Shown one piece after another: positions 6,799 to 64,000 of a stretch of 64,000 nucleotides of DNA. The stretch covers positions 31,248,001 through 31,312,000 of the forward strand of contig OU612068.1 of NCBI GenBank assembly GCA_914767715.1. The letters run 5' to 3'. The position numbers were made by a program, and so were the translations under genes. The stretch comes from Membranipora membranacea. Its lineage: Eukaryota > Bryozoa > Gymnolaemata > Cheilostomatida > Membraniporidae. Within the stretch, counting starts at the first letter, position 1. Each line of letters starts with the position of its first letter. Under the pieces are notes generated by a model. It ran no database searches. It had not been told where the DNA came from and saw nothing but the letters and a program-made list of their open reading frames with translations.

Positions 6799-7405
6799 GA
6801 TGCAATAATGGCTTCTGTCCTGCTCTCACTTTAAAATCGAACATAATACACGCAATGAGCAAATTTCATTAGTGTGTTGCCGGTACTGGCAGTTCAGTCG
6901 GCAAAAAGTGAATACAAATTATTGCTATGTGGAAATACTTTCTATAGGGAACTGCAACATTAAAAACCTTGGAAGTGATGCAAATAGCCTATGTAAAATT
7001 TAGCATTATCTGTAGTCAATGAATGAGTAGTAGTATTTTAACTAGTATGTGCCATCTGCTCACCAATGAGTAAACTCATGGGTTGTCCAAGCCATAAGAC
7101 TGCCACAATTATCCCACCCACCCCAAAGAAACGTGACAGTCCTATGGTCCGAGGCTTCTAAGCAAATACTCAGTATTAATCCAGTCCCCTTGGAGGATGG
7201 ACTTGTTGGTTCAGGGCTTGGAAAAAGAACAATCTCACACACTAACAGCACTAAGTAAGAGACATATGTACGGTTATGATAAGTATAATACTACCGTGCC
7301 TTTATATGTCAGTATTACTTCAGGTCACAGCATGTAGGCAGATGCAGTAACAAGACTGTCCCTCCCAGTCTCCGCCCCTTGTCCCTGATGGGGTCATTTT
7401 GCCTC

Positions 7406-7512
7406 TAGGCATATAAGGAGTTTGCCAGCCAGTGAACTGCCCCCCTATGAACTGAAAGGTGGGCAGTTCATAGGGGGGCAGTTCACAGGCTGGCAAACTC
7501 CTTATATGCCTA
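7406..7512. repeat. foldback element (long hairpin)
   Basis: Arms of about 47 bp begin TAGGCATATAAGGAG and end CTCCTTATATGCCTA, with only about 8 bases of loop. Ten bases just outside (T[C/G]ATTTTGCC at 7394-7403 and 7513-7522) form an imperfect direct repeat, as expected for a target duplication. There is no coding capacity. It looks like a miniature foldback transposon. Confidence 0.7.
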
Positions 7513-8652
7513 TGATTTTGCCATATATATATACTTTCTGCTATGGAATAACTTACCTCCTTTCTGGTCTTCTCAATATTTGAGGATATCCTTTCCTGAA
7601 TTCTCTTTCTATTGGCTAATACTATCCTATAGGTCCCACTATGTCTGTCTCAGTTTTTTGTTCTTGTTTCTTTATTCCACCTACTTACCAGTACTATATA
7701 ATATAGTATAGATCTTTATTCATTCATTTATATGTCTATGTTTATTTGTTTAAAGAGGTTTTCTAGAAAGTTTACAGATAACAGAGTAGTTAAAAAGTAT
7801 ATGTGGTTGCTTAGACCATTCTCCCTGCTTAGACTCAGAGCCCTCCCGCGATCACTTTGGTAGAGCACAGAGTATGTTTACTGCTGAGGCTGTTCCCTTA
7901 TAGATTAGTGCTCAATATATGAGATGTGCATTTTGATTTATAACACAGAAATGACAAATTTAACACTTACTATAACCTGAGACATCGACTGATCACTATA
8001 TAGGCACTATAAATCACTCACCACCAATACATTTGCATGTGCTACAGCAGGAAATGCTTACCCGGGCTAATGCGTCATTCTTTGTAGAGCCAATCAGATA
8101 TCTATATGAAACTATTTGACCAATAAATGCAGCGTTTACAGACACACCTTTTAAATATCTCTTTGTGGCAAGAGGTAGCAAAGTTTAATAGAATTTGTAG
8201 AAAAGAAATTATTTTCTCAACTCAACCTCAATCTCACTAATTTTTATCCACCTTTGGTAGTAACCCACATTGAGAAGCTTTGTCCGGCTACTGTGGTAAG
8301 TTACATATTTTATGATTGCTTACATGAGACCAAACCCTCTATAAAATCAATTATTTGATCCAATGAATTGATTCGATTGATAGATTGAATTGATTGATTA
8401 ATTAAATTGTTGATCACCTACTCCTAGTCTCGTGAGCTGAGGCTTTTGAACGAATTATAATTAATCACAATAATTGATTACAGTTAGTAACAATTTATAA
8501 AATCATCATTATTAGTAGCATTAAACTAGTGGAACTAGACTCAGACCAGATTTTACATCTGTTTGCTGAAACTTAGAGCTGTGGTGGTAGAATAAATAGA
8601 GGGGTCATTGGCCCAACAATTTGGCCTTGGTTGCACCCCTGTGACTTACATC

Positions 8653-25431: not shown

Positions 25432-26069
25432 CAGAGAGACAGCCTCATGAACCTAATATTGATACTGATAACATGAAGACAGCTTCCAGTTGTGAGAGTT
25501 GTGTTCTTCTTTCAACGCCTTGCGATCTGACCGACCTGTATTGTTGCAGGTGTGTTATTTATGTTATTTGTTAGCGGGAAATTCTTGTCCAAAGGATTAA
25601 TTGAAAATTTGTTTAAAAAATGCAGTTGTTTTGACTTTGATATTCACTTTTTATGAACAATAAATAGAAAATCATACAGCATGGATGTTTTGAGGTAACT
25701 GATCCAATTAATCATTAAAATCAATCCCTCATACATCTGTCCCTAGCAAGGAATACTTCCTTGTTCATAGCACCAGTATAATATCAGAGATTGTTACAAT
25801 TAAGTTTATCATAAAAATGGTGCCTACGTAGATCAAAATTTCTGTTAGTGTCCACTGATGTGGGTGGCTGATATGTAAAACTACATAATGGTTATCTCTA
25901 GGACTGAGAAAAGAAAGAAAAGTCCAATTAAACACCTAATTCAAATTTCCAGTTTTTGCTAATTTTAATGCAGTTTCTCATAACCTCATTCCAATTCAAT
26001 TTTCTAGGATTATCAAAACCGGTAGTCGTCATATTCATAGGAGTATCCGATACAAAAGACTGTGTTCAC

Positions 26070-33445: not shown

Positions 33446-33875
33446 TTCTCTATACAATGACAGTATATATACACACAACATGCTGCAGGTGCGAAGACAG
33501 TATTTGCTTTTGTGCCCTCATCTCAGCTATAAAAATCTCAGAGCTGCAATTGCCATGAAGTTTTGGCGCCAACAGAATAGTGCAGTGGTTCTGAAGCATA
33601 CAAGCTTCATGTCACAAATTCCCCTTCTGCTGGCGTTACATGCTAATGTATATGTGAAAAATCCACTATTCATAAAGAAGCAAAAATAACCCGATAATTT
33701 ATGAAATAAAACTCAAGACAGACTCATCTATATGCTACATTGGGAAAACCTGCATTGATTTTCAAGCAAATACCACAATTTCAAGATTTTGATAAAACCT
33801 GGCAAAATCAGAATGCTCCTCAATGATAAATAGCACATTGCTGAAAACTTGCTCAATTTGTTATACTGATCTAAC

Positions 33876-33895
33876 CAAGGAGTAACAGCTCCTTG
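33876..33895. mobile_element. micro-palindrome CAAGGAG...CTCCTTG with 7-bp repeats
   Basis: CAAGGAGTAACAGCTCCTTG is flanked on both sides by exact ATCTAAC (33869-33875 and 33896-33902). This is the structure of a 20-bp insertion with a 7-bp target duplication. Confidence 0.75.
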
Positions 33896-33940
33896 ATCTA
33901 ACAGACTGGCGTGCTGGAACTACAGTGGCATCTGTGTAAC

Positions 33941-33968
33941 CAGGGAGAATGGAATTCCATTCTCCCTG
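33941..33968. mobile_element. micro-palindrome CAGGGAG...CTCCCTG with 7-bp repeats
   Basis: A perfect 28-bp palindrome (half site CAGGGAGAATGGAA) is flanked by exact GTGTAAC at 33934-33940 and 33969-33975. It lies only 45 bases from a related insertion. Confidence 0.8.
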
Positions 33969-34339
33969 GTGTAACAAAGTTAACTTAATCACCGTCTAAG
34001 ATCAAAAAAACTTACTTTGTGTGTTATGATGTAGTTATTGCAGCTCTTGCAAAGATCGAATGAAGTCACAAATCTGATTCTTAGGGTGTTACCTCTAATA
34101 TTGTGGCTGGTGAGCATTAATTATTACTTGGAAATTTAGTTAAGAGGTATAATTGATATGGCAATCTCTAAAGATAATAACTGACATAACAATGCTCACA
34201 GTGTAATCGCATACAATTAGCTGCACTCTGTTGAGGGGGAGAGGAGGTTTCACCTGTAAATTATCCCTCTCTATATTTATTTTTATTTTTCACTTGTCTT
34301 TTAAAAATATAATGGACATAAGTCATTCAGAAATATAGG

Positions 34340-43058: not shown

Positions 43059-44054
43059 TTTATTTTAAATCAAGAGACACCTCAAGGCACCAACTTATTT
43101 ATGACTTATCTTATGTGAATCAAAACACACTGTCTGAAATAAACTGAACTAGACTTTGACCGGACTAAAAAGTTACAACTCAGTGATAAAAACTATGGGG
43201 TCAGTGACCCAGTTAAACTCAGGTCAGACTGTTTGTATGATAATGGGCAGAAGATTACTGAAGCGTTTCAAATTGCTATAATTACATGTATGATGTAATG
43301 ATGTTTTCATTATGTTAGTTGAAACTTGATAACCCATAGACTTAATATACTACCTAGACAGGCCAATAGCATTCAATACTGTCCCACTTAAATAGCACGA
43401 CATGACGTAATTAGTTTGTGCTGTGAGCCATAGTTTACTATATACCATTCAATGAAATAATGTGAAAAATCGAGGGACGCCGGGCATGATATCGGCCTTT
43501 GTCCCGCCCCTAATTATTTAAACACAGAGAAAATTTGTGAGTTTATGTAAAAGACCTTTCCGCACGAGATGGTATAAAAAATTGACTCCTTAGGCGAATC
43601 CAAAGCGAGAACAGACCTGATAATTTACAATCATTAGCCAATAAATATTGAAACAAATACAGCCATCTACCCTTAACACTAGTACCACTACTATTCAAAT
43701 GCACAGGATACCCACAACACAGTATCACAAATACTTTGTTGGATGAGCCAGATCAAAGCACCACCACCATCATCATAGATTTTTGCATAAATATTCCTAG
43801 TCATGACTGAGCACAACCTGCTCAGCTTGGATTCCTTGTTAAAAGATTTTACTGCAAATTTTATTGTCGCTTCATGAGGAAGAATAGATCTGTGCTGTAA
43901 ATTGATTATGCCAACTCCAGATATGTATGTATGATGAAGTCTTTGGTAATCTCTCATCGATGAAATAATATAGTAAATCAAGACACTCAGGGTATAGTAC
44001 CAGCCAAATTATATTAGATCTGTTTTAATTTATGAGATAAAAATTATCAAAACA

Positions 44055-44580
44055 AATACAGCCCTGTACTTAACCACTTATATCACTACATGACAAAAAA
44101 GAGGGCTGTTACTGCGGGATTGTACTATAATTTCTGAGGGCACAACCAAGGCTAACGGCTACCACTATCAGCGATTGCTACCATATTCGATGTGACTGAT
44201 TACAGCATAAGCTAAATCTTATCGACACAAATACAGCCATGAAGCTAGCCACTTCTTATCACTACTTTGTAAAAAATATGAATATATACTGTTGAGTTAT
44301 ACTAATTGTTGTGGGCACGACAAAAATTAAAAACACTACCACTATCAGCGAGCATTGCAAAGTTAGATATGACTGGTTGCAGTATACATTAAACTTAATC
44401 AAATTAGTAGAGCAATGTAAGCTAACCACTTCCTACACTACTTAGCAAAAAAATATATATACTGTGGGATTATACTGAATTTTGCGGATGGGTCAAAGAC
44501 TAGAAAACTACCACTATCGGTGATTGCTGCAAAATTTCCAAATGAGACACTATCACTATCAGCGATCGCTGAAAATTAGA
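44055..44580. repeat. subterminal tandem repeats, unit about 170-190 bp, in the P-like element
   Basis: Three diverged units start with ACAAATACAGCC-like sequence (44055, 44227, 44400) and each contains TACCACTATC[A/G]GCGA or variants (44160, 44338, 44511). They lie on one side of the element only and could serve as transposase-binding repeats (inference). Confidence 0.6.
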
Positions 44581-45649
44581 TATGACTGAACACAATAAGC
44601 CTGCTCAGTTTGGAGCGCTTATTGTCAGTGTTTGCTGCGAGTTTGGTTGTTTCATGGTGTATTCTGACCAGCGTATATCTCTTCACTATTAGACACTGTG
44701 GATAGTGTGGGAAGGAACGGAAAATTGTTGGGATAGCATCCTTTTTTAGCAAAGCTCTCCCACCCACACCAGGAGGCCTTCTAAATGTATCTTGTTTCAA
44801 ATGTTCGCAACAAAGAACATCATATTTGGATGGAGTCCAGTTCTTGCGTTTAACGGCCGAAACCCATACCTTTAGTCTCTCCTCGTTATTTCTGGGGAAG
44901 GCGTGGAAGCTTAAATTAGGATTTCCTGCCGGGTTATTTCCACAGCCGTAGGCTGCACACCAGTTCCTAGATGACTTTTTCTAAAAGCATCACAAATGAT
45001 AACATATACAATAATTATCATTAAACTACAGCTTTTGATATAATAAACAGAAATTGTAAAATCAATTTCATAGCAGTGTCAGCATGGCAAAGAAAGATTT
45101 GCGAGATCACCGATTAAGTCTACTCACACTTTTTGACTGCTGTGCCAGTTCTGAGTTAGATATTTCGGGAGTAAATCAGAATTGTCATCTCAAATAGTGT
45201 CCCTCCAGCCCCCCCCCCCCCCGCCCCATCACTATCGTTCCACCTTTTTTCTCTAACATTCAAATTTTATCACACCCATCGATTATTATTTACGATGTCT
45301 TATATATAGCCTTAAATTTAAGTGCATGTATAGAAGGATGTGGGTATTATTATGTGACAATATTTAATTGATTTCTATTTAAAAATAAATAAGGAAGCCT
45401 GTCCTCTTAGATGGATGGGACAAGCAGAAATTATGTCAAAAAATTCAATCCAATAAAGACCGAAATATGACAATGCATACATGAGAGCCACCACTGGGCT
45501 GTTTCTTACCTTATCATCTTGTGAAGTGGTAGCAGCAGGATTTTCATCTTGTGAAGATGAGGCAGCAAGATTATCATCTTATCATCTTGTGAAGATGAGG
45601 CAGCCAGATTATCATCTTGTGAAGACGAGGTAGCAGGCTGTAGGCTCAT
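44576..45649 (-). pseudogene. THAP-domain protein of the P-like element, frameshifted
   Basis: Exon 1 45510-45649 (ATG at 45649) and exon 2 44576-44980 on the minus strand. Exon 2 holds a complete THAP C2CH zinc finger: CAAYGCGN, SFHAFPRN, the Trp of RKNWTPS, CCEHL, and the diagnostic AIPTIF end. THAP binds DNA in P transposases and THAP proteins. Exon 1 is a Ser-Gln-Asp-rich repeat (SSSQDDNLAA). It carries a tandem 8-bp duplication (GATGATAA), so its first part is out of frame with the THAP exon. After the domain the frame ends at about 135 codons with no catalytic region. Confidence 0.8.
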
Positions 45650-46425
45650 TTAAAAATAGTTTTGCTATAAACTGAGCGGCGTGGGTATTATATCCAAAAC
45701 TTCCATGTTTGCCTTGTATCTCGCAACTGATGATAGTAAAATTGCAGCTGGGCTTACTTGTGAAGATGAGACAGCAGGCCGCAGGTTCACGTTATATAAA
45801 TAAATAATCTCAAGTATGAATATTCATACTTTGAAAATTCAAAGTATGAATATTAAAACCAGTAACCACTTTGTTTACATAGTATCTTTCATCTTCTGTT
45901 TCAGTACAGGGCTGTATTTGTTTTGATAATTTGTATCTCATAAATTAAAACAGATCCAATATAATTTGGCTGGTATTATACTCTGCGTGCCTTGATTTAC
46001 TATATTATTTCATCGATGAGAGATGACCATAGACTTAATATATATATGTTAAGGGTATATGGCTGTGTTTGTTTCAATATTTATTGGCTAATGATTGTAA
46101 CTTGTCAGGTCTGTTCTCGCTTTGGATTCGCCTAAGGAGTCAATTTTTTATACCATCTCGTGCGGAAAGGTCTTTTACATAAACTCAGAAATTTTCTCTG
46201 TGTTTAAATAATTAGGGGCCGGACAAAGGCCGATATCATGTCCGGCGTCCCTCGATTTTTCACATTATTTCATTGAATGGTATATAGTAAACTATGGCTC
46301 ACAGCACAAACTAATTACGTCATGTCCTGCTATTTAAGTGGGACACATTATGATCAGTGAAGCATAAGCATTGTCCTGTCTAGGTAGTATATTAAGTCTA
46401 TGTGATAACCTAACCAAATATGATC

Positions 46426-47290: not shown

Positions 47291-50200
47291 ATGAGTGAAT
47301 CAGAGAATTATTTGCTGAATCCATTGAATGGAGAGTTCACTGGGAGATATAGACTGAGCGATGATGGAAAGGTTAAAGTTGCTGGAGTTGTTACAGGCCA
47401 TCCATCCGATAAAGAGATACTTGCTAAGATCGACAAGGAAATGGATGAGTATGTGTGGTGTGAGGATGACTTCCTGTTATCTACCTACCCTAAAAATGGT
47501 AAGTTCTGTCCAGTGTCCCTTGATCTGGCACTGGAACAAAACATCTTCTAACCTCAGTGCACGGCCCTGAAATCACTTTTAGGCTCTTATCTGATATCAA
47601 ATAGTATATTGGCATTTACGTCTCTTCATCAACGTTGTGAGAGCAACAAATGAACATCAGGGCTTGAAAACTGTTGGTCCAGGTGATCTTGCTAAATGCT
47701 ACACCTCTAGATTTATCAATTTGAGCGGGCAACATTTTATTTCTATTTCCAGGAACACATGTACTGTGGGAAGCAATGAATATGCTGTTACGTGATTCTG
47801 CTGAATATTTGAATAACTCCATGATGGATTGTGCTCTGGGTCTGGTGCCTATTAGTGAGACGTTAGAGAACTACAACTCACCAAGAGTGTTCACTTGTCA
47901 TTATCGACACGATGTCCTTCCTAAAGAATTCAGGAATCGTAAAACTGTTTTGGGTGAGGAATGTCACCATCATTAATTGGTTTCACCATATGAGCTAGTG
48001 ATTGGAAAAAAAAGTGTGTCAAATAGCGAGGCTGGCGAAAGGCTTCTGTTTTCATCCACATAAGATGATCCGTATACAAGATAAATAAATTGCTCACAGC
48101 ATGTTGACTTAGACATTTTTTGCATTTTTGTTTGTATTGCTGGGGATTTCTTTTTAGAAAAAAAATATTATTGTGTCATGTAATGTAACACCCTAATTTC
48201 ACACATGGGTGGTTTAGGATGATTGAGATGCACTTGCACATAGTGCTCTCGTCTTCATTTAGTAATGGTAGATATAGCCTCAATAATATGGTTGTGCCTT
48301 GGATGTCAGTAATGTGTCTCTTTCTTTACAGGTATAAGAAACCCTAAAGATGTTGCAGTGTCATTTTATCATTTTTACGCCGAGCATGTGAGTCATCCTA
48401 TCGTCTTGACTGCTTACTTTGCTGATGTACTAGCCCATCGCAACAAAGTGCTTTCTTTTGCTTACGTCAATCCTGTATCCTGTAATCCTGATCGCATTAT
48501 GTGTTAGGACAAAAAAATACACTGAATATTGAGCCGTTAAGAACTTGAAATTTTTTCGAATATGCGTAGTTTGGCACTGAAAAGTTAGAAGCAGTCCCTG
48601 ATATAAGCGATTTTCTTGGTTTCGCCAGAAAGCACTTTGTGGTGCTAGTAATGTGACAATGTTATGTGTGGGGGTTAAGTTTGCGATGACCACTCCGGGA
48701 GTTCAACTTTTTTTCCTTTTTTATATACAAAAATGGCATTCAGTACATTGTTTGTGGTTGTGAGGTTACCAGAAAAGTAATTTACGCTGAACAAACTGGC
48801 ACAAGTATGTTCCCTCTGGTCTACTGGTCGAGGTATTTGAATAATTTGAGATAAGGCTTATCTAGGCTGGATGGTGCAAATTTAGCTTTTTGCAATAGCT
48901 ATAGAGGCCCTATAGCTTGTTTTCCTATCAAATCAGGTGAGACCTAATTTCTGCACAGACTCAGAAGAGGTACACAGTTATAAGTTCACATTCTCAGACT
49001 ATCAGAATCACCTTATGTTTGATAAGGATCAGCCTTATGGTACCTACTGGGACTTTATGGACTATATGTGGCCACTGGCTAAAGACAACCCAAATATACT
49101 CATACTCTTTTTTGAGGATCTTAAGAAGGTATGCACCCAGATTCCATATTAACAAGCCCTTTTTATTACTGTTATGTTTTTATGTAGGTTTATCGGTAAA
49201 ATATGGCGAGTAATTTGCAATGTACTGATGTGTCTGTGACATTTACTATTTTGTTGTATAACCAGAGACTATAGATATATCTATAGTCTCTGGTATAACT
49301 GTGTCGGCTATACAGTCACTACTTACATGCCTCAATCATTACGAAATGATGAGTTTCTATCATACCTTGATTCTAAGCTGAGCTTGCAAAGACGCACATC
49401 CTAAATCAAATCTCGGTGCACTTCTCATAATTATTCTCCCCAGCTCTGTATGCTTCAGCCATATCTGGCTTAAAGAGTATCATATCCAAACTCCAAATGT
49501 TTAATTAACAGGATCCTGTAAAAGAAATCACCAGACTTAACGAGTTCATGGGGGTGAATAGATCAGAGGAACTGGTTCAACAAATCGCCGATGCCATCAA
49601 TTTCAAAAATATGCAGAAGTGGAAGCTTGCAAGCAAGAAGGTAGGTACTGAATACAGAGCCATCTCCTACAGTTTAAGATGAGTATTATAGCTGTGTCAG
49701 TCCTGTACTCGGTGAAGGGCCTCTATACATGTTTGTGTGACATGTTTTAAACTTTAAAAATCATACTCTGTGCAAGAAACCATCCTATGAATCTTGATAT
49801 GGAATGAAGAACACTTCACTCGTGTGATAGACTAACTGCAAATATTTAAAATGTGTGGAAGAACAGTACTCTGAGAACCTTGCAATGTACGCGAACTCCC
49901 CCCTGTTAATGGCAAAACAGAGGGTGGGCTGCCCCTAAAGAGGGACGCAAGTTGCCCGGAGTCCTCGTACTGAGAGTGTGATACATCCTAGTGAACTAGA
50001 ATGCATCCTAGAGGTGAGGCCATGGTGGACCTCCTAATCATAGGTGTGCAGCAAGCTGCCAGAAACTGAAACAATCACTAATCAGCCATTGGCAATGACA
50101 CTTTGATCTTAGCCAATAGGCCGAGAAGCGCCATTGATAGTAAACCGGAATGTATGCGAACTCTCAGTTATTAGACCTGTAACCATTTTACATGTTTCTA

Positions 50201-51450: not shown

Positions 51451-51459
51451 TAGTTTAAG

Positions 51460-51489
51460 CAGAGACTATAGATATATCTATAGTCTCTG
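51460..51489. mobile_element. micro-palindrome CAGAGAC...GTCTCTG, copy 2
   Basis: Identical in all 30 bases to 49263-49292, but flanked by a different exact repeat, GTTTAAG (51453-51459 and 51490-51496). Identical cores in different targets argue for movement rather than local mutation. Confidence 0.85.
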
Positions 51490-51898
51490 GTTTAAGTTCA
51501 TGCTCCAGTTGGAATAATCAAGTGCTGGCCGGGCAACATCCTGCATTCATTTTTTGATTGATTTCAATAGTGTTCACATATATATTCAATACACATATAT
51601 ATGTATACTACCCGTATCAAGCTATATATGCCACCTTTCACCACTAATAACGAGATTGAAATTATTGAAATGGCTGTATTAGTATGTATGGATCTGCCAA
51701 ATTAATTCATACACTCATAAAAATTGCCCCACCAATTGCAGTCTGTGCAGTCCTAAGGACATAGCATGTGCTCAGAATATTTAATAGCACAACTATAGAG
51801 GTTAGAAATAGAATACTGCACAGAGTTACCCATTCTAATTTCAAGGGACCCTTTAGACAATGAACTTCATTGCTTTAGAGATGGTTAAATACTACTAC

Positions 51899-54388: not shown

Positions 54389-54582
54389 GATCATCTTCAG
54401 CTATCATAATTTCACTCAAATGCTCAGTCAGACCCATTGTAGGACTGCGGCATATCCAAATTTTGGAATACGGGGGGGGGGAGGTCCAAAGGCTTAAGAT
54501 TAGGATATGCGGTACCCTATGCTCAAAACAATTGTATAGGGGAGGGGGTCAGTTAAAATTGGTTAAAATTGTTGGTAGATAC

Positions 54583-54604
54583 CAAGGAGTAACAGGTCTC
54601 CTTG
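54583..54604. mobile_element. micro-palindrome CAAGGAG...CTCCTTG, decayed flanks
   Basis: 22 bases, nearly the same core as 33876-33895. The flanking 7-mers TAGATAC and AAGAGAC agree at 5 of 7 positions, as expected for an older target duplication. Confidence 0.55.
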
Positions 54605-55303
54605 AAGAGACCAAGCCAGAGGTTTTTGAGTAAGGTGAGTGAGTATCGATTTTTGTTTGTTGAATTATTCATCAAGAACTAGTGCCGATCATACTTGCCA
54701 AGTCTCCCGATTTAGGCGTGACCCTCCAGATTTTTACACCCACCTCCCACTTTTTGTAAATCTCACTATTTCCTCCAGATTTTAGAGAAAGCAGCCCAAT
54801 CACAATTTTTTGATAGTTATCCAAGCACATGTTGTTGTTGACTAGTTACTGTTAAGGACTTTGCACACAAAATTGAAAGGAATTATCAAATCAAACAATC
54901 CTAACAAATTTACCTGTTTTGTTAAGATTCAGCCTATTATTGTAAATGACCAATAGCATCCTCTCATAACTCACAACACTGACTGTCATTGGTCAAAATA
55001 TAAAGTAGCTAGTCAAGTGCATACATTTAGTTTTCATTTCCTTTCAGATCACAGTCTGCGCATGTGCGAACTGTTGAGGCATACGTTCGTCTCTGCAGCA
55101 TAGGTAATACACCTGTAATTAGGTTAAGGTCAACTTGTTGCACCCATCCTCCAAAATAAAATGACTAGTATGCTGAAGACAAATCAGGACCCAGGCAAGT
55201 TGATAGTACTGCAGTCAGTAATATTGAGGCATGAAAATGTTGCCTGTTGTATTTGCAATTGAAATTTTGGTGATTTGAGGTTTTAAATAATTTTAGCAAA
55301 ATC

Positions 55304-55515
55304 AATTTGGGGCGCTTTATGCAGACAAGTCAGTTGAGGCAAAATTAGCTGGAAAACCTGTAAAAATGCACTTGCTCCGTTTGATTGAGCACCGAAAAAA
55401 TCTGACAACGAATTTCCTTTCAATACTCTCAAGTATGTCAGAGCAGAAGCAGACCATCGTTTTGAGTGGTCTGGTTAAAGAATTGAAAGAAGCTGAAGCA
55501 GGCTTTTGGATATGA
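55304..55515 (+). CDS. possible terminal exon, unknown protein
   Basis: It starts straight after ataattttag and is open in phase 0 for about 70 codons to a TGA. The peptide contains GALYADKSVEAKLAGKPV and SEQKQTIVLSGLVKELKEAE, with codon use that looks coding. No ATG-based long frame, no neighbouring exon and no recognised family, so confidence is low. Confidence 0.25.
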
Positions 55516-56026
55516 GAAGTCAACATAATTTGCATGTAAAGCAATGGGGAAATAAATAGAGGTGTTGGACCATAGGGCTTGAACTAATTCACCTAGTCTG
55601 AGTACCAAAATTGGGAAAACAATGGAAACCCATAATTTGGAATTATTTGGGCCTAAATGGAACACTGGTTTTGATATCTCATAACGTTGAACCCTGGGAG
55701 TTGCCTTTCTTGATGGAAAGCAGCGCCACCACTGCTGTGCTGCAGAGATAGACTATGTCACAAGGCTATCCTGCAAGCAGTATGTTCAGATCACACATTT
55801 TTTAGTAATAATTTTGTACTGTCTAGTCTAGTTAAATTTAAGTGAAGGAAAATAGAAACCTAACAATTCCAAAGGTAGGTCCACTACAATTTAACAAAGC
55901 CCGGACCAAACACTTTGAAACATATTTAATGTTACTCAAACAGGAATATAGTACCTTATCTGGATTCTCACTGTCTGTGACTGAGCACATTTTCAGATCT
56001 TGATGATGATGCATGGGCACTTGTAG

Positions 56027-56045
56027 CCTGTCTTGACAGGCAAGG
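56027..56045. repeat. shortened TAGCCTG palindrome
   Basis: TAGCCTGTCTTGACAGGCA: the outer arms of the family with the centre deleted, abutting the foldback that follows. Confidence 0.5.
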
Positions 56046-56140
56046 GCCCCTGGGCCTTACATGCCTCTACTTTGCCAATGGGGTGTTTGATACTGGACAT
56101 TGACAATGTAAAGGCATGTATGTAAGAGTCCCAGGGGCCC
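56044..56140. repeat. foldback element with TGTCCAGTATCAA core, copy 2
   Basis: Outer arms GGGCCCCTGGG and CCCAGGGGCCC, inner arms TTACATGCCT / AGGCATGTATGTAA. The core TTGATACTGGACATTG is shared with the foldback at 8653-8730. Confidence 0.65.
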
Positions 56141-56267
56141 ATGGATTGATTGTAATTGTTTAAAGTGTATTTCACCTCAGTTTGATATTTTAGTACTAGT
56201 ACAAACATGAAATTATTTGGGGTCAAATATACCTTTTCAGCCCTTCCTAGTGGCTGGAAACGCTCTC

Positions 56268-56340
56268 AGAGCTTCTGCAGACGGGGCTCCGCCCCGTACC
56301 CCGCTGGGGGGCTCACACCGCCCCCCAAACCCCCAGGTGG
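56268..56340. other. GC-rich island
   Basis: GGGGCTCCGCCCCGTACCCC, then GGGGGGCTCACACC and GCCCCCCAAACCCCC, a sharp compositional contrast to the surroundings. It resembles the island at 21046-21130. Confidence 0.45.
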
Positions 56341-58375
56341 ATGACTCGGGTGCTTCGCACCCTCGAAGCACCACAACGTGGTGCAGTATCGCCGTAAAAT
56401 GGAATCTCCCTATTTTGTATTTAGATTACTTGGCAAGTATGGTGCCGATGCTGTATTCATTCAATCAATGAATAAGTTTGTTTAAAACTAGTCTGCTAAT
56501 GATTTTTGGTTCTCAAAAATGTATTGTAATGGAATACCTGTTTACTCTATTTGTTATACTGATTGGCTAAATAAGCAAATCAAGCCATCCCATTGGCTTA
56601 AAATTAATTTGGTTTTACAAGGCCAGAGGCAGACAACACCAAACTCTTTGTATAGTACTATAAGACTGGTTTTGGTTTTAACCATATCAAAAACTCATTA
56701 TGAATTCCCAACATTGGTTTTGATTGGTTAGCATCTAAGGAAGTTTCTCAGAGCAGGAAGTTGTGGAGATTGAGATACTGTCATAGTATTCCCCTGTGGT
56801 AAAATGTTTAAGCTATGCCTGCTTTGATGATGATTATTTTGCTGGAATGCGACCTTGAACCATACACTCACCAGGTCCGTAGTTCTAGGGGAGGCAGGGA
56901 CGCTATAATGCTGAATAGAGTGGCCTAAATGTCAGAATCAGCTCATTTGGGACTTCCATTTGCTATGTATATCATTAAAACGCTTTGGAGGCTGAGGGAC
57001 TCAGGAGGAGCTTACAATACACAACCTGGTGTTACTTCATACCCTCAAGGATTAGCGCCTCCTCTACCATTTTTCCTAAACAACGGCCCTGCTCACAGTA
57101 ACATTAATTTAATAAAAGTACTTACAACTATCAACTTAGAGGGGTGTCGGTCAATCTCATACATACATACATAATATTATATATTACTATCATAATTTCT
57201 TACCTCAGATCAAAACATCGCACATGAGTAGTAGGATATGGTTGTAATGAAATTCCTCAATGGATAAAACTGATTTGGCAGAGATACACATAGACACAAT
57301 AAAAATTTTATCTTAGTTATGAATATTAACATGGTTCAACAGAGTTTCTGTAGCTGGAGCTCATCATCATGTGGGTGCAATATTATTTTGTTTATTCAAT
57401 CTTTTTGGTCATGCAGGCTCCATGTCTGGTTGAGGCAGGTTGAGTGCCTGCCCTTAGCCCATGTTATCATGCATAGCCTAGTTTTAGTCTGACCAATCAC
57501 ACCGGAGCAGTCCAGTCAGAGGGTGAATTCCTTTTTTGATATCAAAGTTTAAGCCAGATATATGCAACCATGTAAACAGTAGGGGATTTAGTGAGGCACA
57601 GGTCAGTGTACTAGATTTTTCCTAGAAAAGTTTATGTACTAGAACAGTCTATTTGTCAGTTTGTATTTCACTTACTGATTTATCTATAAACTTAACTTAC
57701 TATGTTAATTTTGGTGGGTGGATGTTTTGTGTGCTACAAATTTTTATTGTTATCTCTTCCCAGGCTTCATAGGGCTTGATGTATAAATAAACCAAAGATC
57801 AACAGGCTAAATATCATCACACTGTCAATCCTATCTCTCCCGGGTGATTTGTATGGGCTTCAGAGGATGATGTTACATAATTATACATTATACATTATAA
57901 CATTATAAATTTTAGTTTCAAGTTTTTGTCACAGCACATAAAACTGCATGAGGTTTACTAACAGCCTTAAAGTGCTTGTAAAGGGAACAGGTTTTTGGTA
58001 TCATTCTAGAGCTCTCAGTCTAGTTTAGAACATTATGCTATGTCCAAAAGCAGCCTATGGCCCAGTAAAGAATTATTTTTACTCAAAGTTGGGAGGAGAA
58101 GGTACTAAAAAGGTGCTATTTTTCTCCTTTGGAGTTGTGATCACTTGTAGAAAATAGTACCTTTTTAGTACCTTAGATTATAATGGGAATATACAGTATC
58201 TCGTAAATAAGACTTTTTGTTATGACACAGTGGTTTTGATATTCCCTGCATACAATATTAAACCACGCAGAATTTATCTATTGAATGAATGAAAGAATAC
58301 AATGCAAATTTAATCCGTCTCATGTTATGTGGCTTAGCTGGTAAAATGGGATAGTGTATAAAATTTCATAATTGA

Positions 58376-58603
58376 GTGACAAAGCAAACGATCGAAATCA
58401 AGCACGGCAAAAATTACAACTCTAGCTCATCCGACAGCGAGAGTGAAAATTATAGGGAGATTAACAGATCCAGTGAGAGCGAGATTGAATATCATTCAGG
58501 AGGCAATTGTAGCAAATCGACGTCGAGTCCATGTGATTATCATAGTGAAAATGTCCCTGAGGTAGTCACACCAATGAACTTAGTTCATTGGTCACACCAC
58601 TAA
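58376..58603 (+). CDS. Ser/Asp/Glu-rich open frame altered by a micro-palindrome
   Basis: About 75 codons rich in SSSSDSESENY-type sequence, not recognised; the frame's first codon is GTG, so the true start or an upstream exon is unknown. Its end is created by the insertion at 58572-58590; the pre-insertion frame would have run about 16 codons past this point instead. Possibly a decayed transposon protein. Confidence 0.25.
   Translation: MTKQTIEIKHGKNYNSSSSDSESENYREINRSSESEIEYHSGGNCSKSTSSPCDYHSENVPEVVTPMNLVHWSHH
58572..58590. mobile_element. micro-palindrome CAATGAA...TTCATTG with 7-bp repeats
   Basis: CAATGAACTTAGTTCATTG is flanked by exact GTCACAC at 58565-58571 and 58591-58597. Core sequence differs from the other micro-palindromes, but the CA...TG ends and 7-bp duplication are the same. 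Confidence 0.75.
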
Positions 58604-60477: not shown

Positions 60478-63400
60478 TTATAGAGCATGACAGAAATCTA
60501 TTTCTTTTCCAACTTCCCATTCATTGAGAAGATCATCAACTAGCTTATTGTCAGCATCAGAGAAATGGTTTTTCCAATCACCAACCGCTCCTAAAAAGGC
60601 AGTACTGATAATTCATGATGCCAGGCTTATGATCAGAATAAGGAGCCAATGTCGACTAGTCTAGTTAACATGTCAAACATACCTAGATAAATAACCAAAG
60701 CAAACCTCTGTTTAGTTTCCACATTACATCTGATCATAATTTGTCCCGTCCATAATCTACTATGCGCAAAAAAATTAGTGGTATGGTATGATTTTGGGCC
60801 ATGATATATGTTGCTGCATTCTAAGAACTACAACAACTATCCTCTCAATTGAGTCTAACTGAATCAAGTAATAGTCTGTGCTGTGAAGCTGCAGGTAAAG
60901 CACCTTCATACTTAAAATTAAATAATATGCATGATTATTGGAGTATAGCATACTAACCTTTACGATATATAGGAGGTGGGGCCTTTTCTTCTTCTTCCGC
61001 TTGCGACTCCATGTCACTTGTAACCCCCTCCCATCCTGTGATAAACTGAAATGTATACTAATAAGTAGTGCTGTGCTTGTTGACCTGCGATGCAATTTAC
61101 TTCATTTAGATATTATAGCAATAAAAGGTGACTTCAAACAAAAACATAAATTCTGGAACAAATCTAGTTACTAGGTTCCCTTATTACCCGACCCAAGAAA
61201 TTATTACCAATACATTAGTTCAGCTAGTCTGAGTGTAAATTGACATAAGCTAGCACTAGCTAGCACCAACATTTGCTAGCTAAGGTGGAAGTTGATGTTA
61301 AATGATGAGGTTGAGTAAGCTAGCGAAAGTTAGCTGGCCATAGATTTCCCTCATCGCTAGCCTGTGTAGAAGGACAATTGTTTCCTCAAGAGAATACTTT
61401 ACTCCTGTACTTCCTGTCTCACCTCAATCATGATCGGTCCGACTGATTCATCGCTTACATTCTTGGATGCTTTCATATTACCAAATGACGTGGCTTCTGC
61501 TACTTCCCGCATCAACTCCACTGATCTCTGTGTACCCATGAAGACATCCACTGCTTTGACGACTGAGTACAGGTCCTATTATCATAATGTGAAAATCAAA
61601 ATATTCAAATTGAAATGAAGACAGTTCTAAAATCAGATATATTTCACTATCATGAAATCGCCTTCTCGTCACGATAAAAACTGACGGAGAGACTTAGAGA
61701 CTGATCGCAGACTATACTGTAATCAGTTGCCTTAATATATGTCACTGATTGAAACTTAGTCGATTTGTTTGCTCCATGTACAACATCCAACGTCTAATTA
61801 ATTCCCAGGGGCAATTTGTATCTAGCCAACAGCTTATTATTATTTTGTGTATCCTGTAAGAGCATGTAAGACATGCATGCATGTGTAGAATGCCGTCATA
61901 GCTGCGAGCACACACTCGTATGCACAAAAATTCAACTCATTTTATCTATACTGGTAGGTGCTGCTTACCAGATTAGCATGTATACCTCAAAGGTCCAACC
62001 CTTACTCGCTATTATCATTGCCGCTATTGCTAACATTTGAGGGAGATTTGTTTTAAAGTGGGGGAGTAATCCCCCTCTATAACACCAAAGTAATCTGTGA
62101 GCCTTAAATCACATATACGTGCCTTCAACGCTGGTGGTTACTCTCATAACTCTGGATGTGGTATTGAGATGCGGGCACCATGCTAATATAGCACATGGTT
62201 GAATAGTATGCATATCATGGTTATCATAAACATGATGGGTTATTCTGGCTCTGTGTGCAAAGCTCTCCACAATTTTGCATTGTATTTGTATTGTTGGCGA
62301 TATCACCGTCACAACTCAGAGATGTTAAGTGGGTGGAGTATCGATCCAATATTGTTTTCTAAATCTTCATAGCGGGCCATATGGGGGGTTTTCCTTCTGC
62401 TAAACCGGTATGGTGGTGCTGTGGAGTCTGGATGGTAAGGGAATGTGTCTACCACTTACCAGCAACCCAAGAAGAGTTTGATAACTTCAACTATTAAAGA
62501 GTATGATTCAGTGAAATACAGAGTCACGGTCTTGTAATGTTGATCAATCAGGACAGCACTTTGAGACATGGTAATTACACTCACCTTTTTCATATCCTCA
62601 AAGAAGACGACCAGAATATTAGGATTATCTTTTGCTAACCGCCACATATAGCTCACATAGTCAAAGTATGTGCTGTAAGGTTGCTCTGTATTTTTGCAAA
62701 AGTGCTTAAGAAATTCAGAGAAGTTGAAGCTAACTTTGCTCTCTGGACTTCTCTTTGCAACCTTGCAATACAAGTATACAAAAATACAAACTGATATATC
62801 TACAAACTTCATCACATGCACCGGTTTTCAATCCATGCACTACATTGTTGACTCTACCTGGCTTCTTTGGATGTCGGATTGGACCGGTGGACATATATCA
62901 GAGCTGTGCTACTCGAGTACAAATTCGAGTACAAGAACTACTCGAGTACCGATTTCAACTACTCTCTACTCTACTCGAAGGGGCCATAAATATACTCTAC
63001 TTGTACTCCCTTGGGAAGAAAGTACTCGGAATCTACAATTGCAAACTTAAATACTCTACTCTACTTTACTCTACATCAAATATACTTACTCTACTTTACT
63101 CTACATCAAATACACTCTACTCTTACTTGCACCAGGGAGTTGTCAACTCCCTGTTGACACATAATACTTCTGCGGCCAGTTTACTATGTATCTGGAGCTC
63201 GCCAGATCAACACCCATGGCAGTACGCGATTCGTTGGTGTTCTGGCACCAAAAGCCGGAAATACTCTTCAAGCTGTACCCTCTTGGCCAAAAAGTGTTGC
63301 GTGTGCCGGCATGTTCTGCTGCCGTCGAGAGGATATTCTCTCACGGTGGCAACTTGATGAGGCCGCATCGCACCTCAATGAGCGATGCCGTTCTGGAGAA

Positions 63401-64000
63401 CCTCATTTTCTGCAAATGCAACAGGCTGCAGGGCCTAGTATAAATAAAGAAAACTAGAACCCGGGGATGGTTGGACATTATACTATTATATTATCATATT
63501 ATTTTATCATATTATTATCATACCCTAATCATTATCATATTATATATATAGGCCTACCTGTACTGGTTAATTTGGCTGTTTTACTTGTTTGTTCGTTTTA
63601 CTTTAATTTAATAAAAAGTACTTGGTTTTTGATTAATGTACTCTATACTTGTACTTGAAATTCAGAAGGAAAACTCTACTTGAACTTGAAATTTGAGAGA
63701 TAACTCTACTTGTACTCGGAATCAAGTTGTGATACTCTTCTTGTACTCGGAATCAAGTTGTGATACTCTACTTGTACTCGGAAGGCAGAAACATGTGTAT
63801 ACTTGTACTTGTACTCGATTTTGTTTTAAGTACTCGCTTACTCTACTTGAACTGAAAAAAAGTACTTGAGCACAGCTCTGACATATATGTTGGCATTCAA
63901 TTTGTAACATGGGACCTGCACAGATAAACAGAAGGTTGAATGATTAACATCATACTCACAAAGGAAATGGCGTGGAAGTAAGCAGAAACAATGGTGTCTT
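60478..64000 (-). CDS. SULT-E, cytosolic sulfotransferase, 5' part off the window
   Basis: Exons seen: 63960-64000 (partial; DTIVSAYFHAISF of the RNPKD motif exon), 62585-62761, 61423-61575, 60958-61045, 60478-60590 (stop TAA). Phases equal those of SULT-B and D. Visible motifs: FDYVSYMWRLAKDNPN, MGTQRSVELMREVAEATSFG, and RKGAVGDWKNHFS. Exon 6 is more acidic (EEEEKAPPP) and exon 5 longer than in B and D, so this is a more diverged member. Exons 1 and 2 (PAPS loop, catalytic His) lie beyond 64000, so intactness cannot be judged. The acceptor at 62761 (tattgcaag) is weaker than the others. Confidence 0.85.
61230..61360. repeat. GCTAGC-rich short repeat in SULT-E intron
   Basis: Six or more GCTAGC-type hexamers spaced irregularly (AGCTAGCACTAGCTAGCACC and later). 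A local low-complexity repeat. Confidence 0.6.
63033..63120. repeat. tandem repeat CTACTTTACTCTACATCAAAT
   Basis: Two to three units of about 37 bp (ACTCTACTTTACTCTACATC...), inside the hAT element. Confidence 0.7.
63133..63153. mobile_element. micro-palindrome CAGGGAG...CTCCCTG nested in hAT element
   Basis: CAGGGAGTTGTCAACTCCCTG (21 bp; given as a palindrome around GTTGTCAAC). Flanks CTTGCAC and TTGACAC match as TTG-CAC / TTGACAC with one base lost. It is nested within the hAT element, so it is younger than that insertion. Confidence 0.6.
63186..63443 (+). pseudogene. hAT transposase C-terminal (hATC dimerisation) fragment
   Basis: 85 codons with the hATC signature: VLRVPACSAAVERIFSHGG, LMRPHRTSMSD, LENLIFCKCN. 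This is the C-terminal dimerisation end of hAT transposases. The RNase-H catalytic core and BED finger are absent, so this copy cannot encode a working transposase. Confidence 0.85.

What the first reader, a model, noticed from the sequence alone, without database searches (positions are those of the whole stretch)
33869..33975. Family of 19-30 bp micro-palindromes flanked by exact 7-bp direct repeats
Five sites share one layout: palindrome beginning CA and ending TG, flanked on both sides by an exact 7-mer: ATCTAAC (33869), GTGTAAC (33934), GTATAAC (49256), GTTTAAG (51453), GTCACAC (58565). Cores differ between sites (CAAGGAG, CAGGGAG, CAGAGAC, CAATGAA starts). A sixth (63126) and seventh (54576) have decayed repeats. 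Targets resemble each other (mostly [G/A]T.[T/C]A[A/C][C/G]). The repeats behave as target duplications, so these are insertions far smaller than ordinary MITEs: either minimal hairpin elements or standard footprints of a larger element with 7-bp duplications. I know of no described family like this, but I could not search.
Basis: seen in the sequence. Interest (0 to 1): 0.88.

Follow-up and report, generated by a model that had tools for sequence, protein, structure and literature searches.

The report
Scars left by departed P-type transposons
The tiny palindromes flanked by 7-letter repeats are healed cut sites left behind when P-element-like jumping genes leapt out of the genome, and this genome holds them by the thousand, a natural record of how broken DNA was repaired.

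Summary
The five named sites are palindromes or near-palindromes of 19-30 bp, CA...TG, between exact 7-bp repeats. The window has a sixth exact site and one one-sided site. Shuffles gave 1 such site in 30 windows, against 6 here. They are not miniature elements. They are excision footprints of P-superfamily transposons with 7-bp target duplications. Intact elements exist in the same 339-Mb genome: 32-33 nt inverted ends starting CAGAGACTATAGATATA|GAGACC, 7-bp duplications, and a 4.5-kb copy with THAP and P-type RNase H pieces. The 30-bp palindromes keep exactly the first 17 nt of that end from each side, overlapping at TATA. P transposase leaves 17-nt tails, and laboratory P excisions in Drosophila give the same layout. 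Genome-wide this end has 831 footprint-type matches with varied centres (control 0); a search for 22 nt or more of one end gave 0. Of 40 read, 32 have exact 7-bp repeats. A second motif has 2008 matches (control 95); 16 of 20 read are exact. The kind is known; what is new is the scale, and the sign of a ~17-nt cut in a 7-bp-duplication family.

The parts
33869..33902 (.). Excision footprint: TSD ATCTAAC, 20-bp core CAAGGAGTAACAGCTCCTTG (33876-33895), TSD ATCTAAC
   Evidence: intact parent element with this end not found
33934..33975 (.). Excision footprint: TSD GTGTAAC, 28-bp perfect palindrome (33941-33968), TSD GTGTAAC
   Evidence: length fits 17+17-6 with GAATTC overlap (inferred; parent end not seen)
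49256..49299 (.). Excision footprint of the CAGAGACTATAGATATA family: TSD GTATAAC, 30-bp palindrome (49263-49292), TSD GTATAAC
   Evidence: the intact terminal repeat of L025/L026/L027 matches for exactly 17 nt per side; 17+17-4 (TATA)
51453..51496 (.). Excision footprint of the same family, same junction, different TSD GTTTAAG (core 51460-51489)
51851..51879 (.).
58565..58597 (.). Excision footprint: TSD GTCACAC, 19-bp core CAATGAACTTAGTTCATTG (58572-58590)
   Evidence: CAATGAAC motif: 2008 matches genome-wide, control 95
7810..7834 (.). One-sided footprint: TSD CTTAGAC, 11-bp insert CATTCTCCCTG (7817-7827), equal to one arm of the 33941 palindrome
54576..54611 (.). Decayed footprint, core CAAGGAGTAACAGGTCTCCTTG (54583-54604), flanks match at 5 of 7
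63126..63160 (.). Decayed footprint, core CAGGGAGTTGTCAACTCCCTG (63133-63153), flanks match at 4 of 7
25740..25770 (.). Possible decayed footprint CAAGGAATACTTCCTTG (25747-25763), flanks match at 5 of 7

Best explanation
Each micro-palindrome is a healed donor site of a P-superfamily cut-and-paste transposon. Insertion duplicated 7 bp of target (shown by exact repeats at intact elements and at footprints). On excision the transposase cut at the outer end of one strand and about 17 nt inside the other, so each flank kept its 7-mer plus a 17-nt 3' tail of the terminal repeat. The staggered cut is inferred from the 17-nt limit and from the known P mechanism. The two tails carry the same sequence, so pairing at a few self-complementary bases (TATA in the modal case), fill-in and ligation give a palindrome; other repair outcomes give blunt, trimmed or filler-containing versions. 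The repair route, microhomology-mediated end joining of the polymerase-theta type, is inferred by analogy with Drosophila. The identical 30-bp cores at 49263 and 51460 are two independent excisions joined at the same favoured microhomology, not copies of a mobile 30-mer. No function is proposed for the scars; they are by-products.
For: (1) Intact elements: L025 2058-3319 (1262 bp, TSD ATTGCAA), L026 290-4812 (4523 bp, TSD GTTAGAC), L027 33-2252 (2220 bp, TSD TTGGTAT), with perfect terminal repeats of 32-33 nt. Of ten further copies, 9 have exact 7-bp TSDs; three of the ten share GTAGGAC and the four bases either side and look like one insertion duplicated. (2) P-type pieces in L026: THAP 9.6e-10, TNP-like_RNaseH_N 7.6e-22 and 4.6e-11 (two frames), RNaseH_C 1.7e-9; one piece matches PDB 6p5a 'Transposable element P transposase' at 7.8e-7. 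(3) 17-nt limit: at 80 ends of 40 sites, matches to the 33-nt repeat run 10-18 nt, peak 17 (30 ends). Of the 8 ends of 18, in 5 (the 24-bp cores) the 18th base belongs to the other arm and in 3 it begins a stretch of extra bases. Whole genome: 831 matches with at least 10 nt per side, 0 with the exact first 22 nt on one side. (4) TSDs exact in 32 of 40, against 2 of 1560 cross-pairings; for the second motif 16 of 20, against 3 of 380. (5) Centres form a repair spectrum: of 40, 18 with 4-nt and 4 with 2-nt overlap, 4 blunt, 14 with extra or changed bases. (6) The Drosophila P excision table has the same layout; one of its two commonest joints, 14 isolates, is a perfect 30-bp CA..TG palindrome between TSDs. 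(7) TSD consensus [G/A]TNNNA[C/T] is close to Galileo's 7-bp GTANTAC.
Against: Intact parents were found only for the CAGAGAC ends; for CAATGAAC, CAAGGAG and CAGGGAG the assignment rests on layout, TSD length and (CAATGAAC) centre heterogeneity. No intact 7-bp-TSD element was found in the window. Some CAATGAACTCCCTCTTC(C) footprints have 18-nt arms, so the cut may be 17-18 nt or a base was added. In L026 the RNase H N-terminal domain is split over two frames, so no intact transposase was shown; a second L026 piece (798-1589) had no PDB match up to E 0.1, and ORFs of L025 matched nothing. Of 40 sites, 8 lack an exact repeat and 2 of these have unrelated flanks. In the Drosophila table, 18 isolates are long-microhomology joints that keep few terminal bases; the patterns used here cannot see that class. 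Excision was not observed directly.
Confidence: 0.95

Rival explanations
1. Minimal hairpin elements: the 15-48 bp palindromes themselves transpose, making 7-bp duplications.
For: The same 30-bp palindrome occurs at several sites with different exact 7-bp repeats.
Against: Centres differ from site to site with the arms constant (listed matches); arms are the ends of real kb-size elements with the same TSD length, cut off at 17 nt; a one-sided 11-bp case exists.
Confidence: 0.02
2. Internal deletion of inserted elements down to their ends (aborted gap repair), not joining of cut ends.
For: Shorter copies exist here too (L025 1262 bp, L027 2220 bp against L026 4523 bp); that P elements yield internally deleted copies is recalled.
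Against: Deletion endpoints would spread through the 33-nt repeat; 0 matches keep the exact first 22 nt of one end beside the other end, and the limit at 17-18 nt is sharp in 80 ends.
Confidence: 0.02
3. Footprints of hAT or another superfamily.
For: CA..TG ends such as CAGGG/CAGAG also occur in hAT (recalled); 8-bp-TSD elements with such ends are in the window (62899-63880).
Against: Duplications are 7 bp, not 8; the coding copy has P-type domains; hAT excision does not leave 17 nt of the terminal repeat on the donor (recalled).
Confidence: 0.01
4. Footprints are mainly somatic: the assembled individual lost elements in the soma, so the germline still carries them. (A variant of the best explanation, not exclusive with it.)
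For: Not excluded; one assembly only.
Against: 8 of 40 sites have mismatched repeats, which for most suggests inherited age, and one site appears in a duplicated stretch (L090/L091). Thousands of clonal somatic events in one assembly would be hard to explain.
Confidence: 0.04

Closest known systems
Drosophila melanogaster P-element excision footprints (PMC2895639, section with Table 1 read)
   Same: TSD + up to 17 nt of each terminal repeat + TSD; joints at short microhomologies, blunt joints, fillers; a perfect 30-bp palindrome among the two commonest joints (14 isolates)
   Different: 8-bp TSD there, 7-bp here; excisions at one locus in flies without Rad51 there, natural sites across a genome here
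Galileo, P superfamily (PMC4168063, passages read)
   Same: 7-bp TSD, palindromic target consensus GTANTAC / GTATTAC, THAP + P-type transposase
   Different: Galileo has long internally repetitive terminal repeats (abstract starts in a listing); here the repeat is 32-33 nt
Zebrafish Pdre2 / THAP9 elements (PMC10983969, passages read)
   Same: P-superfamily transposase, CA-starting terminal repeats
   Different: 8-bp TSD and 13-bp terminal repeats; larger flanking deletions after excision by zebrafish THAP9 in S2 cells
P-MITEs of Anopheles gambiae (PMC1562414, passages read)
   Same: Short non-autonomous P derivatives
   Different: They carry subterminal sequence and 8-bp TSDs; the word beginnings footprint and palindrom occur 0 times in that text

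Membership tests
P superfamily (P element, Galileo, 1360, THAP9-like) | Transposase with THAP domain and P-type RNase H (TNP-like) domains inside an element with these ends | tested here: met
   L026 290-4812: PF05485, PF21787, PF21789; PDB 6p5a 7.8e-7 for one piece, no PDB match for another; pieces lie in separate frames
P superfamily (P element, Galileo, 1360, THAP9-like) | Terminal inverted repeats of about 30 bp beginning CA | tested here: met
   32-33 nt perfect repeats in 10 of 10 further copies and in L025, L026, L027
P superfamily (P element, Galileo, 1360, THAP9-like) | Target duplication of 8 bp (P) or 7 bp (Galileo) | tested here: met
   7 bp: 9 of 10 intact copies exact; L025, L026, L027 exact; 32 of 40 footprints exact
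P superfamily (P element, Galileo, 1360, THAP9-like) | 17-nt staggered cleavage leaving 17-nt tails on the donor | tested here: met
   Indirect only, from retained lengths: peak and limit at 17, 0 matches with the exact first 22 nt; no biochemistry
P superfamily (P element, Galileo, 1360, THAP9-like) | GTP-dependent transposition | not testable with these tools
   -
P superfamily, for the CAATGAAC / CAAGGAG / CAGGGAG sites | Intact P-type parent with the same ends | not tested
   No genome search for such parents was run; searches for CAGGGAGA footprints and for PF21787 were asked and never answered
Galileo proper | Long, internally repetitive terminal repeats | tested here: not met
   Perfect repeat ends at 32-33 nt
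hAT superfamily | 8-bp target duplication (recalled) | tested here: not met
   Longest exact repeat is 7 bp in the 32 exact sites and the 6
Autonomous micro-hairpin element | A constant transposing unit | tested here: not met
   Centres vary at constant ends (listed matches)

The most novel reading that the evidence does not exclude
This genome runs P-type elements in an excision-dominated mode: several diverged families with 7-bp duplications have been cut out and repaired by end joining so often, and so recently, that scars outnumber intact copies roughly ten to one and number in the thousands. That could reflect host-driven removal or a transposase biased to excision. Crude extrapolation of 17 exact sites in 314 kb gives about 18,000. 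The scars would form a very large natural record of germline break repair on one defined substrate.
Probability: 0.25. Interest if true: 0.8.

Novelty: new member of a known kind. Interest (0 to 1): 0.6.

Why it matters
The 17-nt stagger is an odd hallmark of the P transposase, called unusual and atypically long. Here it can be read from the genome itself in a family with 7-bp duplications, so its conservation across the superfamily becomes testable by counting. Many footprints that began as the same two 17-nt tails form a natural, replicated assay of end-joining outcomes: microhomology, trimming and fillers. Such palindromes could be mistaken for hairpin elements and should be recognised as scars. 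Genome scans for TSD + CA..TG palindromes could reveal past P activity where no intact copy remains.

Tried and rejected
Micro-MITE: rejected on centre heterogeneity and the 17-nt limit. Internal deletion: rejected on the limit. hAT: rejected on TSD length and transposase. Coding search of the 1262-bp copy L025: 0 Pfam families in 5 of its ORFs, 0 PDB matches for one, so L025 alone did not name the superfamily; the 4.5-kb copy did. A scan for intact 7-bp elements in the first 264 kb found none; the first came with L025. A scan of viral contigs for the 30-mer gave 0, uninformative for a eukaryote. An early guess that the host is a sponge shaped literature queries and was never tested; the organism is not identified. 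Literature: searches listed no paper that I recognised, from titles and abstract starts, as describing natural P footprints on a genome scale. The lists were capped (for example 20 of 1,047, 15 of 57, 15 of 32), and only the open PMC library was searched. Five papers were opened in part: PMC4168063, PMC1562414 and PMC10983969 (passages), PMC7776569 (passages, outline, one section), PMC2895639 (passages, one section). Limits of counts: one search counts only CA[AG]NGA hexamer pairs, so one asymmetric exact site (L008 8386) and the one-sided window site lie outside it, as does L012 1118-1127 (10 bp, TSD CTTGAAC), which may be another one-sided footprint. sites were selected by a search that demands 10 nt per side. 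Pattern counts are matches; a few are nested (seen at C1:2695257). The ten-to-one ratio compares 831 matches found with 10+10 nt (repeat variants included) with 158 exact 23-nt ends, so it is not like for like. One search asked only for the commoner repeat variant.

Full report
CHECK OF THE OBSERVATION. Three cores are perfect palindromes; the 20-bp one has a 6-bp unpaired centre and the 19-bp one a single unpaired base. A scan of the window for palindromes with adjacent direct repeats of 6 bp or more returned ten rows: these five, one more of the same kind (51858-51872, 15 bp, TSD CTTTAGA) and four unrelated ones. With CA..TG ends, arms of at least 5 and an exact 7-mer there are 6 sites, against 1 in total over 30 dinucleotide-preserving shuffles. 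A scan of short CA..TG inserts between exact 7-mers, 11 rows in the window, added 7817-7827, an 11-bp insert CATTCTCCCTG equal to one arm of the 33941 palindrome. The other four extra rows are poorly palindromic and I take them for chance.

GENOME SAMPLE. The window is C4:31248001-31312000 of a 339,339,785-bp genome in 18 contigs. Twenty 10-kb stretches from near the starts of contigs C1-C5 and five adjacent ones from 10 Mb on C1 were read. In window plus 20 stretches (264 kb), 31 inverted pairs of CA[AG]NGA hexamers span up to 66 bp; 12 have an exact 7-bp repeat outside. Of 457 pairs of other CA-hexamers, 0 do. The next 50 kb had 10 such pairs, 4 exact and 2 with 6 of 7. An asymmetric exact case is L008 8386-8429. 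That is 17 exact sites in 314 kb, about 54 per Mb. Carried to the whole genome this would be about 18,000, a crude figure since 200 kb of the sample is near contig starts and the density is uneven.

THE PARENT ELEMENT. Looking for the outer letters of the palindromes elsewhere in the sample gave, in L025, two inward-facing copies of CAGAGACTATAGATATAGAGACCTTCCACTTGC bounding a 1262-bp element with the 7-bp duplication ATTGCAA. The palindromes at 49263 and 51460 match this terminal repeat for exactly 17 nt (CAGAGACTATAGATATA) and then turn into its reverse complement, overlapping at TATA. The first 23 nt of the repeat occur 78 + 80 times in the genome, control 0. Two longer spaced pairs were fetched. 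L026 290-4812 (4523 bp, TSD GTTAGAC) has pieces with a THAP domain, both parts of the P-type RNase H N-terminal domain in two frames, and the RNase H C-terminal domain. One piece matches the solved Drosophila P transposase, 6p5a, at 7.8e-7; another had no PDB match up to E 0.1. L027 is a 2220-bp copy with TSD TTGGTAT. The next ten copies examined were the first ten pairs of about 1.2 kb in the list apart from the three already held: 9 have exact 7-bp duplications and one 6 of 7; three of the ten share TSD and the four bases either side and are probably one insertion duplicated.

FOOTPRINTS GENOME-WIDE. The pattern CAGAGACTAT-(0 to 28)-ATAGTCTCTG has 831 matches, reversed-pattern control 0. The first 40 listed sites were read with 30-bp flanks, none left out. 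Exact 7-bp repeats: 32 of 40; 6/7 in 3, 5/7 in 2, and 4/7, 2/7 and 1/7 in one each. Pairing each left flank with other sites' right flanks gives 2 exact in 1560. The 7-mers are nearly all different (ATGATAC occurs twice) and follow [G/A]TNNNA[C/T], close to Galileo's GTANTAC (passages of PMC4168063). Against the 33-nt terminal repeat, in two variants, the 80 ends keep 10 (3), 11 (6), 13 (1), 14 (4), 15 (12), 16 (16), 17 (30) or 18 (8) nt. Five of the 18s are 24-bp cores where the other arm supplies the G after TATA; in the other three (L035, L053, L066) the G begins a stretch of extra bases. The search itself demands at least 10. Asking for the exact first 22 nt of one end within 30 bases of the other end gives 0 in the whole genome. 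Taking 17-nt tails, 18 of 40 joints overlap by 4 nt, 4 by 2 nt, 4 are blunt and 14 hold extra or changed bases.

SECOND MOTIF. CAATGAAC-(0 to 30)-GTTCATTG has 2008 matches, control 95, again with varied centres in the listed part. The 20 sites listed after C1:9921 were read: 16 have exact 7-bp repeats, two of these apparently one duplicated site; 2 have 6/7, and one each 4/7 and 3/7; cross-pairings give 3 exact in 380. C1:9921 itself (L001) is exact, with 17-bp arms round 5 bases. L003 7399 and L021 9239 share CAATGAACTCCCTCTTC (17 nt) plus one more base and then part. Some listed sites have 18-nt arms ending CTTCC, so the cut may vary by a base or a base was added. Intact elements with these ends were not looked for.

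MECHANISM. P transposase cuts at the 3' end of the element on one strand and 17 nt inside on the other (PMC7776569, section 5 read). In flies lacking Rad51, excision of a P construct gives joints made of the 8-bp TSD, up to 17 nt of each terminal repeat and the TSD, with microhomology, blunt and filler joints. One of the two commonest joints, 14 isolates, is a perfect 30-bp CA..TG palindrome; the other, also 14, is an 8-nt imperfect microhomology that keeps few terminal bases, a class my patterns cannot see (PMC2895639, section with Table 1 read). That paper links long-microhomology joints and larger insertions to polymerase theta (passages). The window sites have this layout with a 7-bp instead of an 8-bp duplication. 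Shown: layout, TSD, parent ends and P-type coding copy for the CAGAGAC family, 17-nt limit, joint spectrum. Inferred: the staggered cut itself, the repair pathway, and that the other terminal motifs belong to related P families.

AGE AND RATIO. Identity between the two 7-mers is 0.925 over all 40 sites and 0.962 over the 38 with at least 4/7, about 2% change per copy in the latter, a selected set; most scars do not look ancient. Footprint matches of the CAGAGAC type outnumber intact ends by about 831 to 79 pairs, but the two searches are not equally strict. Why scars so outnumber elements is not explained: repeated loss by end joining, host removal, or a transposase that cuts more than it inserts would all do.

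COMPARISON AND NOVELTY. The CAGAGAC sites work like, and by the features that could be tested are, P-superfamily excision products; the other motifs are assigned by likeness. It is not Galileo proper, which has long terminal repeats. Nine answered searches of the open library, with capped lists, showed no account of natural P footprints on a genome scale; subscription papers were not searched. I therefore call it a new member of a known kind, with an unusual scale.

Noticed in passing
window 43335-46402: 3068-bp element with long, ~93% alike inverted ends starting CATAGACTTAATATAC, exact 8-bp TSD TGATAACC and a THAP-domain ORF (44576-44980, minus; Pfam 1.3e-15): a foldback-like P relative with an 8-bp duplication.
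   Followed up: partly
window 54690-56441: 1752-bp element, ends CATACTTGCCAAG, 8-bp TSD GTGCCGAT; the ends resemble zebrafish Pdre2 (CATACCTGTCAAC). The genome may host both 7-bp and 8-bp P-like families.
   Followed up: no
window 62899-63880: 982-bp element, ends CAGAGCTGTGCT, 8-bp TSD ACATATAT, hAT-like by recall; the decayed palindrome at 63133 lies inside it.
   Followed up: no
window 7404-7514: 111-bp near-perfect hairpin element with 8-bp TSD ATTTTGCC.
   Followed up: no
L045 (C1:4896832-4896923) and L061 (C1:12115493-12115585): Two footprints with unrelated 7-mers on the two sides; they could be joints between ends of two different insertions, i.e. rearrangement breakpoints.
   Followed up: no
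L082-L087 (C3 21.77, 21.90 and 22.06 Mb): Three intact copies with identical TSD and identical four bases either side, about 0.13-0.16 Mb apart: probably a segmental duplication carrying one insertion.
   Followed up: no
L001-L020: Exact sites are uneven: L001, L002, L003, L005 (three) and L008; none in L004, L006, L007 and L009-L020.
   Followed up: no
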